IMG/VR virus record: IMGVR_UViG_3300031857_001341
Coordinates: 1-24,276 of that record
Reading direction: 5' to 3' (one strand)
DNA length: 24,276 bases
From: a virus
In this document: in pieces, positions 346 to 22,048 of the stretch
Layout of the letters: each line of letters opens with the position of its first letter
Position numbering within the stretch: the first letter of the stretch is position 1
The notes under the pieces: model-generated
Databases searched by the model: none
The model's input: only the letters and a program-made list of their open reading frames with translations
What the model was told of the DNA's origin: nothing
Program-made: the position numbers and the translations under genes

Positions 346-488
346 TGCCGCTCATTAAAGACATTGGCAAAAAGGCATTCCAAAAGAATGTCAAAGCTGA
401 GATTGCTGCGGGCAAGCCAGTTAAGCAGGCCGTGGCTATTGCGTACTCAGTTAAGCGTGAGGCTGCAACCAAGAAGAAGAAGAAATAA
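345..488 (+). CDS. Small basic phage protein with KQAVAIAYS motif (47 aa)
   Basis: The start overlaps the stop of the previous gene and the stop overlaps the start of the metalloprotease-like gene, both as TAATG. The product begins MPLIKDIGKKAFQKN and has a central block GKPVKQAVAIAYSVKR, then a Lys tail. The KPxKQAxAIAYS block is very common in tiny proteins of tailed phages. Those proteins are annotated as hypothetical or as domains of unknown function, and no role is established that I know of. The predicted structure is helical and amphipathic with a strong positive charge. It is the third of three such genes in a row, which makes a shared function plausible but unproven. Confidence 0.72.
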   Translation: MPLIKDIGKKAFQKNVKAEIAAGKPVKQAVAIAYSVKREAATKKKKK

Positions 489-2089
489 TGGCCACATTGT
501 CAGATGTTTTGCGTGAAGCAAAATATGCGCCGCGCACAACCTTAGCCCAAACCCAAAAAAATTATGTTATGGGCATTGGCCCAACTGCCATGAAAAACCT
601 TGCTAATCAAAGGGCGGACATAGATGCTGCGTTGGTTATGGGTGATGCGGGGTTACAAATAGGTAACAGAGAGGCGTTTGAGCGCCAAATTTCCGAAGTA
701 CCTAATGTGGCCGGTATGTTTATTGGCCCCAAGTCATCTGCCTGGAATAAACCTGCTTACGAAAAAGCCGTAGAAATGGAAAAGGCTGGGGCGCGACCCT
801 CTGATATTTGGCGCGAAACCATGACTGCCCGCGGCTTAGACAATAAATGGCGGCAAGAGATACCTGATTATGGCGCAGTATTGAATATGGAAAAAATACC
901 AAAAGCGCCTAATGAAATTGATTTAGCAAACAAATTATTATTACAACGAGGATTTATTCCACCAGAAAAGGTTGGTCTTTTAGGTGTGGGAAGTAGTGAA
1001 AATTTAATACCTGCAGCAGCCCAAAAAAAGGCTCTTGAAGATGCTAGATGGGAAATATTAACTAAACCAGCGCAACAAGTTCGTCTAACTTCTGCATTGC
1101 AACATAATGCGCTTGAGGAGGCTTACCCTAATCTTGTTAACAATCTAAGAATTGCGCGTGAGACCCGTAAAGACATACGCGGAGCCTACGACCAAGAAAA
1201 GAAACTGGTTACAACTGGTGGTGCAACCCATATTGGCCAAACCGCAGACGAGCAAGCCAATGCAGCCAGATCAACATTGCTGCATGAAATCCAACACGCT
1301 ATCCAACAGACCGAAAACTGGGGGCGCGGTGGTAGTCCAGAATCTGCCAAACTAATTGCTCAAGCCCAAATTAAGTCTGAACTTGCGCCCTTGGCCACCC
1401 CATTTGCGACTAACCGTAAATATTGGGACGATTACGGCGCAGCTGCTAGGTCAGAATACATGGTCCGGCTTGGTGACATTGCGACCAAAGAAAACATCAA
1501 ACCAAGAACTATTTACAATCTGCAAGATTGGTATGTATACGGTAATGATTACCGGCGTGAGGCTGGTCCACAACCTAAAAAGCCAGGCGCAGCCAGAGAT
1601 GAATGGTTTAGGGGCGCGGCTCAATTTATTCAAGACCGTAAATTTTCATCCGATGCTAAGTATCAAGACCTGCCATATGACAACCTGCGAGACGCGAAAA
1701 ACGCACAAAAACGGGCTATGACCCAGATCAAGAAAACCGATGAGGCTGCGCGTCAGTTTCAAGAATTAGGCGCAAAACAAAAACGATTTGACGAATTGTC
1801 TGATACAGAGGCCTATAGACGGTTGGCCGGTGAGGCCGAGTCAAGATTGACCCAAGCAAGAGAAACGCTCAATATGAATGAGCGCCGAGAAAACTTTCCG
1901 TTTAATGAGCGATATGAAAGAACGACCAATTTAGGTATTAAAACCGTTACAAATCCTTTTGGATTGGATGTTCCAGCCAAAGAAACTGTTGCGTATACCC
2001 AATTTGGTGACCCATTAGCAATGTTTTTAAGTAGTAAACCTACCCAAGACCCATTACAGATGTTTATTGGACTTCCAAAGAGTCGATAA
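488..2089 (+). CDS. Polyvalent-protein-type domain with HEIQH metalloprotease-like motif (533 aa)
   Basis: A 533-residue soluble protein whose ATG overlaps the stop of the tiny gene before it. The key feature is STLLHEIQHAIQ with H266, E267 and H270, a zinc-metallopeptidase-type HExxH motif. The N-terminal part (FIGPKSSAW near residue 79, then WRETMTARGLDNKWRQEI) and the C-terminal part (LSDTEAYRRLAGEAESR) match what I recall of a large polyvalent protein-associated domain. That domain occurs in giant phage and conjugative-element proteins that enter cells with DNA, and in standalone prophage proteins. I see no signal peptide or membrane helix. Possible roles are a virion-borne or maturation protease, or an enzyme acting on host proteins; none is shown. 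A third zinc ligand was not identified. Its 3' end overlaps a minus-strand gene by 26 bases. Confidence 0.8.
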   Translation: MATLSDVLREAKYAPRTTLAQTQKNYVMGIGPTAMKNLANQRADIDAALVMGDAGLQIGNREAFERQISEVPNVAGMFIGPKSSAWNKPAYEKAVEMEKAGARPSDIWRETMTARGLDNKWRQEIPDYGAVLNMEKIPKAPNEIDLANKLLLQRGFIPPEKVGLLGVGSSENLIPAAAQKKALEDARWEILTKPAQQVRLTSALQHNALEEAYPNLVNNLRIARETRKDIRGAYDQEKKLVTTGGATHIGQTADEQANAARSTLLHEIQHAIQQTENWGRGGSPESAKLIAQAQIKSELAPLATPFATNRKYWDDYGAAARSEYMVRLGDIATKENIKPRTIYNLQDWYVYGNDYRREAGPQPKKPGAARDEWFRGAAQFIQDRKFSSDAKYQDLPYDNLRDAKNAQKRAMTQIKKTDEAARQFQELGAKQKRFDELSDTEAYRRLAGEAESRLTQARETLNMNERRENFPFNERYERTTNLGIKTVTNPFGLDVPAKETVAYTQFGDPLAMFLSSKPTQDPLQMFIGLPKSR

Positions 2090-2225
2090 CCTCACCAGTT
2101 TTGGCCATGATTAGGTCTATCGTGCGATTAAGAACCGCTAATTGTTGCTCACCAGTAAGCATTTCAAAGTTTAAGGAATAAACAATAGTTTGCTCACCTG
2201 ATAGATAAAGATACATATCGTTCAT
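2064..2225 (-). CDS. Hypothetical small protein, last gene of minus-strand cassette (53 aa)
   Basis: It reads leftward from ATG at 2225-2223 to TAA at 2066-2064. The ATG overlaps the TGA of the gene before it in an ATGA arrangement, which argues for real, coupled translation. The product begins MNDMYLYLSGEQTIVYSL, contains LTGEQQLAVLNRTIDLI and is mildly acidic, with no membrane segment or recognised motif. The second half looks like an amphipathic helix. Its 3' end overlaps the C-terminal codons of the metalloprotease-like gene on the other strand by 26 bases, so the transcripts are convergent. Function unknown. Too short to have been called by a 60-residue cutoff. Confidence 0.6.
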   Translation of the reverse strand: MNDMYLYLSGEQTIVYSLNFEMLTGEQQLAVLNRTIDLIMAKTGEVIDSLEVQ

Positions 2226-2386
2226 AAATGCCTTTCTTTAAGTAACTTTTCAATATAGTCAAACGCATCCTTATGTTTTTGCTCTAAAGCCACTATTCGG
2301 TCAGATTGTTGGCGCAGCATTGCAGCCACATCCTTAAACAACTGGCCAAACTTATCCAGATCATCTGCCATCTCATTTGCGCTCAT
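2222..2386 (-). CDS. Hypothetical helical protein, middle gene of minus-strand cassette (54 aa)
   Basis: It reads leftward from ATG at 2386 to TGA at 2224-2222. A purine-rich GAAAGGG lies upstream as a possible ribosome site, inside the end of the preceding tiny gene. The product begins MSANEMADDLDKFGQLF and continues with DVAAMLRQQSDRIVALEQ. It is highly charged and almost entirely helical in appearance, with heptad-like spacing of Leu, Ile and Phe that suggests a short coiled coil or helical hairpin. No DNA-binding motif is evident. The 4-base overlap with the downstream gene supports it as part of an operon. Function unknown; a small regulator or an inhibitor of a host protein would fit its size, but that is speculation. 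Confidence 0.65.
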   Translation of the reverse strand: MSANEMADDLDKFGQLFKDVAAMLRQQSDRIVALEQKHKDAFDYIEKLLKERHL

Positions 2387-2453
2387 CTTGGCCCTTTCTC
2401 AAAGCAATGTGTTTTTGTAGGATATGCCAGAACTCCGATTTGATTATTTCCAT
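2373..2453 (-). CDS. Micro-protein, first gene of minus-strand cassette (26 aa)
   Basis: A 26-codon frame reading leftward from ATG 2453-2451 to TGA 2375-2373. It is preceded by GGAGGAG at 2462-2456 on the minus strand, among the strongest Shine-Dalgarno sequences in the window, a few bases before the ATG. The product begins MEIIKSEFWHILQKHIALR and is a single amphipathic basic helix. Its last 14 bases overlap the start of the next gene. It could be a true micro-protein or a leader peptide that loads ribosomes for the next gene. The strong ribosome site is the main evidence; composition alone would not justify the call. Confidence 0.45.
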   Translation of the reverse strand: MEIIKSEFWHILQKHIALRKGQDERK

Positions 2454-2455
2454 AA

Positions 2456-2462
2456 CTCCTCC
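2456..2462 (-). promoter_or_regulatory. Strong ribosome binding site GGAGGAG for minus-strand cassette
   Basis: The plus strand reads CTCCTCC at these positions, giving GGAGGAG on the minus strand just upstream of the ATG at 2453. It decides the start of the 26-codon frame and is the main reason to believe leftward transcription through this region. Confidence 0.55.
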
Positions 2463-2468
2463 ATTAGA

Positions 2469-2481
2469 GTAAACAGTTTAC
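2469..2481. promoter_or_regulatory. Perfect 13-bp palindrome, candidate operator
   Basis: GTAAAC-A-GTTTAC is a perfect inverted repeat with 6-base arms around one central base. It lies in the short space between the minus-strand cassette and the terminase genes, 16-28 bases upstream of the leftward ATG at 2453. Without a longer stem or T-run it is not a terminator, so a dimeric repressor or activator site is the natural reading. A TATAGT box on the minus strand (2487-2482) abuts it and would place a leftward start inside the palindrome. The same bases read TATAAG (2484-2489) on the plus strand. Neither box has a convincing -35 partner. Confidence 0.4.
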
Positions 2482-2556
2482 ACTATAAGATTAACACAAA
2501 CAACAAGAAACGATTTATTATTATGTAACTGGAACTTATTGATTGAGTTAATCACT
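2482..2556. promoter_or_regulatory. Divergent intergenic region, AT-rich, possible promoters
   Basis: This roughly 75-base AT-rich stretch separates the leftward cassette from the small terminase gene. It contains TATAGT on the minus strand and TATAAG and TATTAT boxes on the plus strand, but no good -35 match at 16-18 bases from any of them. A rightward late promoter using a phage-encoded activator, or readthrough from the left, could therefore serve the terminase genes. I see no hairpin. Promoter presence is inferred from the divergent gene layout and is weakly supported by sequence. Confidence 0.3.
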
Positions 2557-2826
2557 ATGGCCGCACCGATAGGAAATTCTAATGCCGTGAAAGGCAAGAT
2601 GTTTTATGACAAGCTGAGAAAGGTTCTAACTCAAGAACCTCAAAAGCTGGAAAACATTGTTAAGCAGCTCGTTACGCAAGCTGAACAAGGCGAGGCCTGG
2701 GCTGTGAAAGAGGTCATTGACCGGTTGGATGGTAAGGCCGTTCAAACAAACCAAGTAGAAAACGCCGATGGAACTCCGCTTTTATCTGGTATTCAGGTCA
2801 TGTTTGTAAAACCACAAGATGCTTGA
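2557..2826 (+). CDS. Probable terminase small subunit (89 aa)
   Basis: A short protein directly upstream of and overlapping the large terminase gene by 8 bases, the classic position for the DNA-recognition subunit of the packaging motor. It begins MAAPIGNSNAVKGKMFYD. The APxGNxNAxKG opening is common in phage small terminases and packaging-associated DNA-binding proteins, and helical segments follow (LRKVLTQEPQKLENIVKQL). I start it at ATG 2557 rather than an upstream in-frame TTG at 2539, because homologous proteins begin at this APIGN block. At 89 residues it is shorter than many small terminases, so only the N-terminal DNA-binding and oligomer helices may be present. The C-terminus ends in the short beta-like stretch SGIQVMFVKP. 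Confidence 0.65.
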   Translation: MAAPIGNSNAVKGKMFYDKLRKVLTQEPQKLENIVKQLVTQAEQGEAWAVKEVIDRLDGKAVQTNQVENADGTPLLSGIQVMFVKPQDA

Positions 2827-18317: not shown

Positions 18318-19667
18318 ATGGCAGTTAATATAAAACCAGACATCTCATTAAGCGCTAAACCACCAACAATGATGACATTGCCGGAAATGGTTAACATGGC
18401 TCGTAATGCGCAAGCATACCAGCGTGAAAGAGAAATATTCCCTGAATTGGTACAACAAGCTAAAACACAAACGCAACAATCCCAATTTACCTTAGATAAA
18501 GATCAAACTGCTGGCATTATGTCTTTAGTTGGTGGTTATCGAAATGACCCTCGAATTAATAGTGGAGACGCTAACCAAGCCGCAGAGGCAATGCAAGAAA
18601 TCCGCTCTAAAGCCGTGGCTATTGGAATTCCTGAAAAACGAGTAGACGATTTAATGCGCATGGGTAACGCAATTGCGTTGCGCAATCCCAAAAACCTTGG
18701 CCAATATTTTGATAATGTAATCCAATCTCAGATTGGACCGTCTGGCCAACAAGCATTACAAACACCGCAAATCGTAAGTTCGGGCGGTCAGTCTGGCATA
18801 TTCCGTGGCGGCCCTGCAACCGTAACAACATTGCCATTACCTGGAGCCGCTTCTTCGCCAGCGCCTACAGGCGTAACTCCAGCAGATATGACTGCTCCCA
18901 TACTACCAAAACCAGCAGCTGCTCCGGCTGCAGGTCCAGCGTCAACATCAATGGTGCAGCCAGATACGGGCCGTTTGCCTTTAACTTATCCGGTGCGTCA
19001 AGCCGGCGTACCTTTTGCTGCGCTTCCGCAAGAAGAAACAGACCGCACCGCTGGCAGCCAATACCGAAATGGTTTAGTGCAGCGTCAGTCTGAACTGACA
19101 ACGGCACGGCGTAATTTACAAGAAGTTGTTAAGACCGCACAAAAACTGCAAGAAGAATCTGTATTACCAGAAACAGGCCCTGTTGGTGCAGTTAAAAGAA
19201 AATTTGCTGATATTGTTGGTGATCCAACTTATAAACAATTATCTAAAGACCTGGCTAATGTGCAGATTTCTAACATTAAAGCCGTTGGTGGCTCATTAGA
19301 TACGGTTGGCGGTCAACAATTAATTCGTATGGCAAGTGGTGACGAGACATTCCCACCAGATGTATTGCTAAGTATTGCCCGCCGCGCCGATGCCGATATT
19401 ACCAATCTTGACATGATGGCAACCGGAATGCAGAGACATACCCAAAAATTTGGTGATGCTAACGCTAAACGATTCCAGCAGATGTGGTCATCAAACGCAG
19501 ACTCTCGTATTTTTGAAATTATGAATATTGCGCGTGATGTTAAAGATGTTAATAAACGCAAGGAATTAACCGACAAGTTGCTTGGTGATATGGATGACAA
19601 CCAACGCAAAGACCTGTATCGTAAATACAACAATTTAGTAAAATTAACAAATTCAGGTGATTTGTAA
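18318..19667 (+). CDS. Candidate DNA ejection protein, P22 gp20 position (449 aa)
   Basis: An AGGAATAAAT stretch precedes the ATG. The N-terminal 60 residues are helical and Gln-rich (NMARNAQAYQREREIFPEL). Residues about 160-235 form a Pro/Ala/Gly-rich linker that could let the protein unfold. The C-terminal 190 residues are a helical domain with RQSELTTARRNLQEVVKTA, TGPVGAVKRKFADIVGD and RRADADITNLDMMATGMQR. The length is near P22 gp20 (471). The stop overlaps the next start (TAATG). Sequence similarity to gp20 is not apparent to me, so the call rests on order, length and the coil-linker-helix architecture. An internal scaffold-like role remains possible. Confidence 0.62.
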   Translation: MAVNIKPDISLSAKPPTMMTLPEMVNMARNAQAYQREREIFPELVQQAKTQTQQSQFTLDKDQTAGIMSLVGGYRNDPRINSGDANQAAEAMQEIRSKAVAIGIPEKRVDDLMRMGNAIALRNPKNLGQYFDNVIQSQIGPSGQQALQTPQIVSSGGQSGIFRGGPATVTTLPLPGAASSPAPTGVTPADMTAPILPKPAAAPAAGPASTSMVQPDTGRLPLTYPVRQAGVPFAALPQEETDRTAGSQYRNGLVQRQSELTTARRNLQEVVKTAQKLQEESVLPETGPVGAVKRKFADIVGDPTYKQLSKDLANVQISNIKAVGGSLDTVGGQQLIRMASGDETFPPDVLLSIARRADADITNLDMMATGMQRHTQKFGDANAKRFQQMWSSNADSRIFEIMNIARDVKDVNKRKELTDKLLGDMDDNQRKDLYRKYNNLVKLTNSGDL

Positions 19668-22048
19668 TGCAAGACATTGGCCAACTTATATTAGGTGGCT
19701 CAAAACCGCCATCCCAGCAACCGTCTAAAGATAGTTTTCGTTTTGAAAATTTGCAACCCACACAGGTGCAAATGGCGGTAAAACGGTTTACTGATATGGG
19801 ATATAACCCTAATCGATTACAAGAGATATTAACTACTCCTGAAAAATTTAATAATTACCCATTAGAGGTTCGTAAACAGTTTTTTGAACTGTCCTCTGGA
19901 TCGCAGCCAGCAATGGCTAGGCCGTACACTAACGAGCCCGTAACCACAGAGATAACAAATAAACCGGCCGTTGCGCAACCCACTATGCGCCAAGCTGTTG
20001 CCGACCCTATTGGTGACATGATTTTAGGAAAACCAGTAGAAGTTAAGACAACCGAGCCACCAGCCCGTAAAGTTGGCAAAGTTAAAGATATGAGCGAGGC
20101 CAGCCCATTAACCCAGTTTGGTCGTACTGCTGCTAGTTTTTATGATGCAACCATTGGCAGCGTTGTTCCAGGGATTGTAGAACCAGTTACTTATGCAGGA
20201 GCCCGTGCAATTGGCAAAACGCCAGAGCAGGCTAAACAAATAAGTACGGCAGCTGCTGCGCCCTTTGAGTCTGGTATGGGCAAGACTTTTGGCGTAACAG
20301 AAACTCCAGAATATCAAAGCGAGGCAACTCGCCGCTTGTTTAATTTTGTTGGTGAAAATTTCCAAAAGGGCGCTGCGTGGATTGCTGAAAAAACAGGATT
20401 ACCGGCTACCGATATTGAAAACATGATGGGAACTGTTGCAGCCGGTGGTGGCGTAAAAGCTGCGCCAGCCGTACAACGCGGAATCGTTAAGGGTGCAGAA
20501 ACCGTAGAAACTGCTTTAGGAACTGCAGTACCAAAAGCCCCAGAGGCACCTAGAGTTGAACCAACTTTAGCCGGCAAACCTAAAGTAACTTATGCAGAGT
20601 TTCAGGCTCAATTACAAAACAAACAAGGTGGAACGGCTGCTACATTACCACCAGCGCCAAAAATACAAACCCCAACAATGCCTGCACCAACCAATACGCA
20701 GCCATTCCCAGAAGTTAAGTACGCACAAAAGGGCAGCGTAAATCTGCCAGAGCAAGAACAACGCAAGCAAATATTGGCTCGTGTTGGCTTAGAAAACGCC
20801 CGTCAATCCTCTATTTTGGGTGACGGTTTTGCTGCGGCTAACGAGTTTCAGACTAGCAAAGTAGACGCTCCCGTAGGCCAGCTTTACAGAGATACACTAG
20901 CCAATGAGCGGGCTACATTAGAAAACTTTGGCCAAAAAATTGTTGAGCGCACGGGCGGAACTTTAGGCCTTGATGAAACTTCTTTATATGACCGCGGCAC
21001 ACGAATTGCACGGCCTTTTGATGATTTTAAGAATGTACTGCAAACTCAAATGGATCAATCGTATGCCCAAGCTAAAAAAGTAGCTGGAACGCAGCCAGCG
21101 GTTATACCAAGCGACCTACAGAAATTCTTAGATACAAATTCTAACTTTACTGTAAACGACAGTTTTATGTCTTTGCGCCGCGGGGTTGAGGCTCATTTGA
21201 AAGAAAATGATTTACTTGATGCAAACGGCAAAGTAAAACCAATGACAGTAGAGCAGGCCGAAGGTTTGCGTAGATACATTAATTCGAATTGGAATAATGA
21301 GCGCTCTGGAATTATTGGCCGCCTAAAAGACAAAATTGACAATGATGTCACTAAGGTTGCTGGCGAAGATGTATACAAAAAAGCCAGAGACATTCGTACC
21401 AAAATTGCTCGCTTGTTAGATGATCCAAAAGGCGTAGCCAAGATTATGGATTACGATCCACAATCCCCAATGAATCGCGCCGTACCGTTTGAAAAGATTG
21501 CCTCAACCGTGGAGCGGATGGATGTAGACCAGCAGCGGCATTTAATTAAACTGTTAAAAGAAATGCCAGACGAATTACGGCCCCAAGCAGATGCAGCAAT
21601 TGCAGAAATTAAAGCCCAGTTTGCTAATCGCATATTGCAAGAGGGCTCTAAAAACAAGGGTCAATGGAATGCCGGCAATATTACAAAATACTTAAATGAC
21701 AACAATCGCAAACTTGGCGTATTGATGGAAGATAAAGAATTGGCCCAGATGGTTAAAGACTTGCATGATGCTGGCCATTTGGTCAAATATGACGCGTCCT
21801 ACCCTGGCGCAGCAATACAGGCTCACAATTTAATTCGATTGGGCGCGGCACCATTATTGGGAACTTTAGGAACCTCAGTAGGCGGAGCGGTTGGAGGTGC
21901 TTTTGGCGGTGTGCCAGGCGCTGGAGTTGGAGCGACTGTTGGCGGTATGTATGGCGCAAAGAAGGGTGTGGCAATGGCAGAAAAATCTGCATTAAAACGC
22001 GCTCAGAAAAAAATGGTTCCCCTCAAAGATGTTGGTAAAGGACAATAA
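19667..22048 (+). CDS. Candidate DNA ejection protein with glycine-zipper C-terminus, P22 gp16 position (793 aa)
   Basis: The largest of the three ejection candidates. The N-terminal 280 residues are Pro/Thr/Ala-rich and contain two copies of a short motif, DIGQLILGG (3-11) and DPIGDMILGK (about 113-122). The middle (about 380-700) is helical and charged (MDQSYAQAKKVAGTQPAVI, TVERMDVDQQRHLIKLLKE). Near the end, residues about 724-771 hold a long glycine-zipper stretch (LGTSVGGAVGGAFGG then VPGAGVGATVGGMYG), which could insert into a membrane as expected for proteins forming a conduit across the host envelope. I see no lytic transglycosylase motif. Length exceeds P22 gp16 (609). The call is by synteny and architecture. 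Confidence 0.65.
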   Translation: MQDIGQLILGGSKPPSQQPSKDSFRFENLQPTQVQMAVKRFTDMGYNPNRLQEILTTPEKFNNYPLEVRKQFFELSSGSQPAMARPYTNEPVTTEITNKPAVAQPTMRQAVADPIGDMILGKPVEVKTTEPPARKVGKVKDMSEASPLTQFGRTAASFYDATIGSVVPGIVEPVTYAGARAIGKTPEQAKQISTAAAAPFESGMGKTFGVTETPEYQSEATRRLFNFVGENFQKGAAWIAEKTGLPATDIENMMGTVAAGGGVKAAPAVQRGIVKGAETVETALGTAVPKAPEAPRVEPTLAGKPKVTYAEFQAQLQNKQGGTAATLPPAPKIQTPTMPAPTNTQPFPEVKYAQKGSVNLPEQEQRKQILARVGLENARQSSILGDGFAAANEFQTSKVDAPVGQLYRDTLANERATLENFGQKIVERTGGTLGLDETSLYDRGTRIARPFDDFKNVLQTQMDQSYAQAKKVAGTQPAVIPSDLQKFLDTNSNFTVNDSFMSLRRGVEAHLKENDLLDANGKVKPMTVEQAEGLRRYINSNWNNERSGIIGRLKDKIDNDVTKVAGEDVYKKARDIRTKIARLLDDPKGVAKIMDYDPQSPMNRAVPFEKIASTVERMDVDQQRHLIKLLKEMPDELRPQADAAIAEIKAQFANRILQEGSKNKGQWNAGNITKYLNDNNRKLGVLMEDKELAQMVKDLHDAGHLVKYDASYPGAAIQAHNLIRLGAAPLLGTLGTSVGGAVGGAFGGVPGAGVGATVGGMYGAKKGVAMAEKSALKRAQKKMVPLKDVGKGQ

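What the first reader, a model, noticed from the sequence alone, without database searches (positions are those of the whole stretch)
2064..2453. Unannotated three-gene minus-strand cassette of micro-proteins inside a plus-strand late operon
Between the metalloprotease-like gene and terS, three frames of 26, 54 and 53 codons run leftward. They show a 14-base and an ATGA overlap and a GGAGGAG ribosome site at the head. Everything else in the window is on the plus strand, and the last gene overlaps the convergent gene by 26 bases. The products have no recognisable motif. A divergent leftward micro-operon placed beside the packaging genes is a typical site for anti-host or regulatory phage genes. 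That these are translated is seen in junctions and ribosome site; the function is inference.
Basis: partly seen in the sequence, partly recalled or inferred. Interest (0 to 1): 0.6.

Follow-up and report, generated by a model that had tools for sequence, protein, structure and literature searches.

The report
Phage micro-operon paired with convergent effector
Three tiny backward-running genes in an uncultured phage are real; the last one overlaps, end to end, the gene for a probable injected effector enzyme and is always found with that effector type in other phages, so it may be the effector's matched inhibitor or helper.

Summary
In detail: ORFs of 26, 54 and 53 codons run leftward at the stated coordinates, with the stated junctions, ribosome site and 26-nt overlap. 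They are genes. Frames persist in IMG/VR relatives with dN/dS 0.11-0.19, and 55 of 61 relatives with a visible site carry a leftward cassette there. The cassette is modular: nine small-gene families shuffle at ATGA junctions behind a highly conserved divergent control region.

The larger result lies beyond the coordinates. The upstream "metalloprotease" gene is a polymorphic, polyvalent-protein-like effector with exchangeable N- and C-domains. The last micro-gene tracks its C-domain without exception: the 53-aa P1 goes with the metalloprotease domain, and a 69-aa remote relative, G, with a second domain. Among 57 distinct junctions, 14 are P1-type and 43 G-type, none crossed; 56 overlap by 26-98 nt and all 57 keep one phase. 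The pair also occurs beside unrelated terminases. My leading reading is a cognate inhibitor (immunity-like) or chaperone of the effector. Passive linkage through overlap remains a serious rival. No expression or biochemical data exist.

The parts
2373..2453 (-). P3: 26-aa first gene (MEIIKSEFWHILQKHIALRKGQDERK); its 3' end carries AGAAAGGG, a likely Shine-Dalgarno for the next gene
   Evidence: (dN/dS 0.11)
2222..2386 (-). P2: 54-aa exchangeable cargo gene (helical, coiled-coil-like by eye)
   Evidence: dN/dS 0.19
2064..2225 (-). P1: 53-aa last gene; beta-hairpin, short helix, long helix; partner of the convergent effector
   Evidence: pLDDT 83; dN/dS 0.17
488..2089 (+). polymorphic effector gene, 533 aa: LPD23 domain and HExxH (HEIQH); C-terminal DPLxMF motif twice
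2064..2089 (.). 26-nt convergent 3' overlap of P1 and the effector gene; overlap length is 2 mod 3 in all 57 distinct junctions of the family
2456..2462 (-). GGAGGAG ribosome binding site of P3
   Evidence: sequence directly
2469..2481 (.). palindrome GTAAACAGTTTAC; mean pairwise difference 0.040 among near relatives against about 0.34 at fourfold sites; possible operator
2475..2503 (-). candidate leftward promoter TTGTTT-17-TAAACT (weak match to consensus)
   Evidence: by eye; one search found no site at or above 9/12 matches
2493..2521 (+). candidate terS promoter AACACA-17-TATTAT (TTCACA-17-TATCAT in distant relatives); mean pairwise difference 0.028
2557..2826 (+). putative small terminase (terS), ATG start preceded by a conserved inverted repeat at 2540-2554

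Best explanation
Shown: 2064-2453 is a real leftward micro-operon, one allele of a modular accessory cassette. Its last gene (P1) forms a conserved convergent, 3'-overlapping pair with a polymorphic effector gene (488-2089). Inferred: the effector is made late, packaged and delivered into the next host as polyvalent proteins are thought to be. P1 (or G for the other effector type), made from its own leftward promoter before the late operon is active, binds the C-terminal effector domain and keeps it inactive in the producing cell until packaging, as an immunity protein does for a toxin. The upstream micro-genes (P3, P2 and substitutes) are exchangeable accessory cargo that use the same promoter; P3 also supplies the ribosome site for whichever gene follows.
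For: (1) Coding and selected. (2) Pair specificity: P1 only with the metalloprotease type, G only with the second type, whichever N-terminal domain the effector has and whichever micro-genes lie upstream. (3) Loci found with the small gene alone (19 by P1; 34 by G) all carry the matching effector: 216 of 216 profile hits are paired, counted with redundancy. (4) Loci found with the second effector domain: all 58 with at least 41% identity carry a G-family gene, two of them with a disturbed G frame. (5) The pair persists beside a 37%-identical TerL or no detectable related terminase (L196, L203, L207, L209, L215). (6) P1 and G are remotely related by profile comparison (60.9%, P 8e-5) and share a predicted fold. 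(7) No effector (L054/55) or an ART effector (L060) means no P1/G, although the leftward cassette is still there. (8) Phage polymorphic toxins with small partner ORFs are documented: 89.4% of MuF toxin genes (PMC5576092), and a prophage ART with two neutralising proteins (PMC11699363).
Against: The two genes overlap, and exchange by flanking homology would always move both, so co-occurrence need not mean function. Remote effector homologues (metalloprotease type at 41% or below, second type at 36% or below, isolate C72C1 at 28.5%) lack the small gene. A convergent immunity gene is unusual. G charge is not uniform (one member pI 8.9). No fold match names a function. Neither toxicity nor virion packaging of the effector is shown, and expression timing is not measured.
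Confidence: 0.42

Rival explanations
1. P1/G is a chaperone or packaging adaptor of the effector, comparable to small chaperones encoded beside secreted effectors: it escorts the effector to the virion rather than blocking its activity.
For: Same co-occurrence data. All effector variants end in a DPLxxF[LIV]-like tail that could be a loading signal. P1 is small and acidic (pI 4.05).
Against: ART and remote metalloprotease effectors carry the tail but have no P1/G, so the tail does not need it. P1/G follows the enzymatic domain type rather than the N-terminal type.
Confidence: 0.2
2. Passive linkage: P1/G is an independent early accessory gene (host takeover or unknown) that stays with the effector only because their 3' ends overlap and recombination exchanges the whole non-homologous block.
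For: The overlap exists in 56 of 57 junctions, always in one phase, which fits a single old overlap inherited since. Swaps occur where flanking homology exists, in the shared effector N-termini and upstream micro-genes. Leftward neighbours look like early accessory genes.
Against: The folded core of P1/G lies mostly outside the overlap and the overlapped tail is low-confidence, so the core could be lost freely; yet it is kept under purifying selection in all 58 second-type loci and was never found without the effector.
Confidence: 0.3
3. Antisense regulation: the leftward transcript runs into the 3' end of the effector gene and limits its expression early; the peptides matter less.
For: Convergent overlap in essentially all members; no intrinsic terminator found just downstream of P1 (nearest minus-strand candidates near 1886 and 1725, no more than chance).
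Against: Protein-level selection on all three genes. ART effectors do without the pair.
Confidence: 0.05
4. The ORFs are chance open frames.
For: Short products, no family matches.
Against: Conservation, codon-position bias, ribosome sites, 63 of 94 junctions with 4-nt ATGA-type overlaps.
Confidence: 0.01

Closest known systems
MuF polymorphic toxins of temperate phages with downstream small ORFs (Jamet et al. 2017, PMC5576092)
   Same: Large phage protein with exchangeable C-terminal domain; a small adjacent ORF that follows the toxic domain.
   Different: N-termini here gave no Pfam match and I did not test for a MuF domain specifically; the small gene is convergent and overlaps the effector's 3' end; the phages are uncultured and temperate growth is not shown; toxicity not tested.
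Polyvalent proteins of phages and conjugative elements (Iyer et al. 2017, PMC5512222)
   Same: Effector variants carry LPD23 and an HExxH motif (window) or ART-PolyVal (L060, L081).
   Different: A small cognate partner is not discussed there ('immunity protein' does not occur); the proteins here are short (345-581 aa).
Bxa ADP-ribosyltransferase with Bsi/BAH immunity proteins of a Bacteroides prophage (PMC11699363)
   Same: Phage-encoded polymorphic effector neutralised by neighbouring small proteins.
   Different: Different domains, host and gene arrangement; function proven there, not here.
Early leftward accessory regions of lambdoid phages (e.g. Sf101)
   Same: Runs of small exchangeable genes on the early leftward transcript; gene D of the cassette has a relative there.
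   Different: Here a separate mini-operon lies between the effector gene and terS, away from the leftward block seen elsewhere in the genome.

Membership tests
Phage polymorphic toxin with immunity gene | Exchangeable C-terminal effector domain behind shared N-terminal domains | tested here: met
   Shared N-termini with different C-domains and the reverse: WIN/L043, L032/L069, L078/L081, L060
Phage polymorphic toxin with immunity gene | Small ORF next to the toxin end, specific to the C-domain type | tested here: met
   P1 or G, never crossed, 57 distinct junctions; but convergent rather than co-directional, and absent next to ART variants
Phage polymorphic toxin with immunity gene | Toxic activity and neutralisation by the partner | not testable with these tools
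   Needs expression and binding experiments
Polyvalent proteins | Domains typical of the class (LPDs, MPTase, ART-PolyVal) | tested here: met
   LPD23 E 6.9e-9 above cut-off; ART-PolyVal E 8.9e-14 in L081 above cut-off, 1.9e-5 below cut-off in L060; HExxH
Polyvalent proteins | Packaged in the virion and delivered to the host | not testable with these tools
   Only position in the late operon and the shared DPLxxF motif
Anti-CRISPR, anti-restriction or other named counter-defence gene | Sequence match to a named family | tested here: not met
   No match above cut-off in PHROGs, Pfam, NCBIfam or PADLOC for P1-P3; no informative fold match for G (PDB, BFVD) or P1 (BFVD only)
Early accessory micro-operon | Compact co-directional small genes with exchangeable content behind one promoter | tested here: met
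Early accessory micro-operon | Early expression | not testable with these tools
   No transcript data; candidate sigma-70-type promoter is weak

The most novel reading that the evidence does not exclude
P1 and G found a previously undescribed superfamily of phage microproteins (beta-hairpin plus long helix), each the dedicated partner of one class of phage effector domain and encoded convergently so that the two genes are entangled through their 3' ends. This would be an antisense-entangled effector-immunity module that moves between unrelated phages.
Probability: 0.35. Interest if true: 0.78.

Novelty: new variant of a known kind. Interest (0 to 1): 0.58.

Why it matters
If the pairing is functional, phage effectors come with matched neutralisers that annotation misses because they are under 70 codons and sit on the wrong strand over the effector's 3' end. 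The rule (look for a small convergent ORF at the effector's 3' end) is simple to apply and to test, and it would bring effector-immunity logic to uncultured environmental phages. The cassette is also a clear natural case of small-gene shuffling at translational-coupling junctions.

Tried and rejected
Rfam: nothing in the window. INPHARED tblastn with P1: no match; with G variants only insignificant matches. Bacterial genomes with G and with the second effector domain: no relatives, so host and prophage state remain unknown. PDB profile searches with G, P1 and both effector domains: nothing convincing. NCBIfam hint of P1 to glycyl-radical cofactor GrcA2 (18 bits against a cut-off of 145): rejected, no glycyl-radical motif. 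The Manatee Spring relatives have plus-strand small genes at this place; a weak resemblance of one to P1 was noted by eye and not pursued. First P1-G profile comparison with narrow alignments gave no signal; broader ones did. Considered whether P3 might be frameshifted into P2; rejected because P3 is found in front of many different genes with its own stop.

Full report
What is in the sequence. The three minus-strand frames exist exactly as described: P3 at 2373-2453 (26 aa), P2 at 2222-2386 (54 aa), P1 at 2064-2225 (53 aa), with 14-nt and 4-nt (ATGA) overlaps, GGAGGAG just before the first start, and a 26-nt overlap of P1 with the convergent gene 488-2089. The window is a 24,276-base viral record. 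A contig 100% identical over the segments compared (G002, 33,021 bases) shows the window to be part of a genome of about 33 kb. Three related contigs of 32-35 kb (G003, G006, G008) have terminal repeats of 69-123 nt, so that is close to genome size. Outside the window G002 has a separate leftward block that by eye includes SSB-, YqaJ-exonuclease- and Erf-like genes; I did not test those names.

Are they genes. A terS-based scan of IMG/VR gave 69 relatives. Of 61 with at least 400 nt of DNA before terS, 55 carry a leftward cassette at this place (my count). dN/dS is 0.11 for P3, 0.19 for P2 and 0.17 for P1, with substitutions concentrated in third positions. The cassette is modular. Nine small-gene families (P3, P2, P1, G, D, E, H, Z, SEC) occur in many combinations, such as P3-P2-P1 (window), P3-P1, P3-G, P3-P2-G, D-P3-G, D-P3-P1, E-D-P3-P1, P3-H-P1 and Z-SEC-P3-H-H-P1. 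Genes are joined by 4-nt overlaps in 63 of 94 junctions. In nearly all loci the first start lies 74-94 nt from the terS ORF start whatever gene comes first. In L025 and L029 the start of P3 is fused to P1 (MEIIK|NDM). In L040 the H cassette is flanked by a 21-nt direct repeat, AGAAAGGCACAAGAGAAATGA, that includes the ribosome site and start of the next gene. This suggests how the modules are exchanged.

Control region. The DNA between the cassette and terS is far more conserved than fourfold sites of terS or P3 (0.34 and 0.33 mean pairwise difference): the palindrome GTAAACAGTTTAC 0.040, a plus-strand promoter-like block 0.028 and the terS leader 0.022. In distant relatives the terS promoter reads TTCACA-17-TATCAT. 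The leftward candidate TTGTTT-17-TAAACT overlaps the palindrome. Both are weak by consensus, and the mechanical scan reported none at 9/12 matches. The palindrome is intact where a near-relative cassette exists and only half kept where the cassette is missing (L077-L081), which fits a leftward operator but does not prove it.

The convergent gene. The 488-2089 product carries Pfam LPD23 above cut-off and HEIQH. In relatives the same position holds proteins with shared N-termini and different C-domains or the reverse: window and L043 share an N-terminus but not the C-domain, L032 and L069 likewise, L078 and L081 likewise, and L060 and L081 carry ART-PolyVal. This is the pattern of polymorphic effectors and matches the polyvalent proteins described in PMC5512222. 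Delivery in the virion is inferred. Most variants end in a DPLxxF[LIV]-like tail, seen in the large ORFs of the genomes examined only in this protein and once in the 793-aa late protein.

The pairing. Whichever N-terminus the effector has and whichever micro-genes lie upstream, the last leftward gene follows the C-domain: P1 with the metalloprotease type and G with the second type. Scans with the small gene alone found 34 G loci and 19 P1 loci. Six-frame profile searches over everything fetched gave 216 hits, all paired (redundant, and partly ascertained through effector scans). A scan with the second effector domain gave 67 analysable loci: all 58 with at least 41% identity have a G-family gene converging on the effector (L205 and L210 with a disturbed G frame), and nine at 35-36% have none. 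With the metalloprotease domain, the analysed loci with at least 57% identity have a P1-family gene (L251 a divergent one; truncated L253 could not be read) and those at or below 41% do not. Collapsed to distinct 180-nt junctions there are 57 pairs, 43 G and 14 P1, none crossed. All 57 are in the same phase (2 mod 3), and 56 overlap by 26-98 nt; the exception is the truncated L210. The pair occurs in front of related terminases, beside a TerL of 37% identity (L196, L200), and where no related terminase is in reach (L203, L207, L209, L215, L131). Loci without an effector (L054, L055) or with the ART effector (L060) keep the leftward cassette but lack P1/G.

The small proteins. AlphaFold2 gives both P1 and G a beta-hairpin, short helix and long helix (mean pLDDT 83.0 and 82.4), with the overlapped tail at low confidence. 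Profile comparison of broad alignments links them (60.9%, P 8e-5), a modest score. G has weak fold matches to unnamed proteins of uncultured phages and none that names a function.

Interpretation. I take as shown that the micro-operon is real, modular and under selection, and that P1/G and the effector types are an obligate-looking convergent pair in these phages. I infer that P1/G acts on the effector, most likely as an inhibitor in the producing cell, with a chaperone as second choice. The strongest counter-argument is mechanical: overlapping neighbours without homology to other alleles will always be exchanged together. What passive linkage does not explain well is why the folded core of a dispensable 53-70 aa gene is kept in every second-type locus down to 41% effector identity and was never found elsewhere. 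What the inhibitor model does not explain is why remote homologues of both effector types do without a partner. The question needs a binding or neutralisation experiment.

Novelty. Effector plus small partner is a known kind (MuF toxins, PMC5576092; Bxa, PMC11699363). The protein families and the convergent 3'-entangled layout found no match in the libraries searched, and the few literature searches made found no description; that is a limited search. Hence a new variant of a known kind.

Noticed in passing
window 2009-2086 (effector residues 508-533) and 793-aa protein 19667-22048, residue 113: Motif DP[LIM]xx[FMI][LIVF] occurs twice at the effector C-terminus and once (DPIGDMILGKP) in another late protein; 3 hits in the window's large ORFs against 0-0.1 expected from shuffles. 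Possible packaging signal.
   Followed up: partly
window 2540-2554, before the terS ATG at 2557: Conserved inverted repeat (TGATTGAGTTAATCA here, TAGATTGAGACAATCTA in distant relatives, with one A-T to T-A pair switch) between GGAAC and the terS start; may shorten the Shine-Dalgarno spacing or be a protein site.
   Followed up: partly
L040, the two junctions flanking gene H (about -157 and -417 from terS): 21-nt direct repeat AGAAAGGCACAAGAGAAATGA on both sides of the inserted H gene, carrying ribosome site and start codon: likely scar or substrate of cassette exchange.
   Followed up: partly
L060 (contig 3300037502_001423), L210 (3300020044_001869), L205 (3300008110_004149): P2 split by a frame disruption next to an ART effector (L060); G truncated or disturbed in L210 and L205. 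Could be decay or assembly error.
   Followed up: no
L057, L061, L073-L075 (Z and SEC genes of the cassette): Swapped-in genes include a four-cysteine zinc-ribbon-like protein and a protein with an apparent signal peptide (MRKLLGCLLFIPTMAFGA...), possibly acting in the periplasm.
   Followed up: no
L196, 4327-5256 on the + strand: A second large ORF with an ART-like start (VFHGSPY) directly follows the effector/G pair, suggesting an effector array before terS.
   Followed up: no
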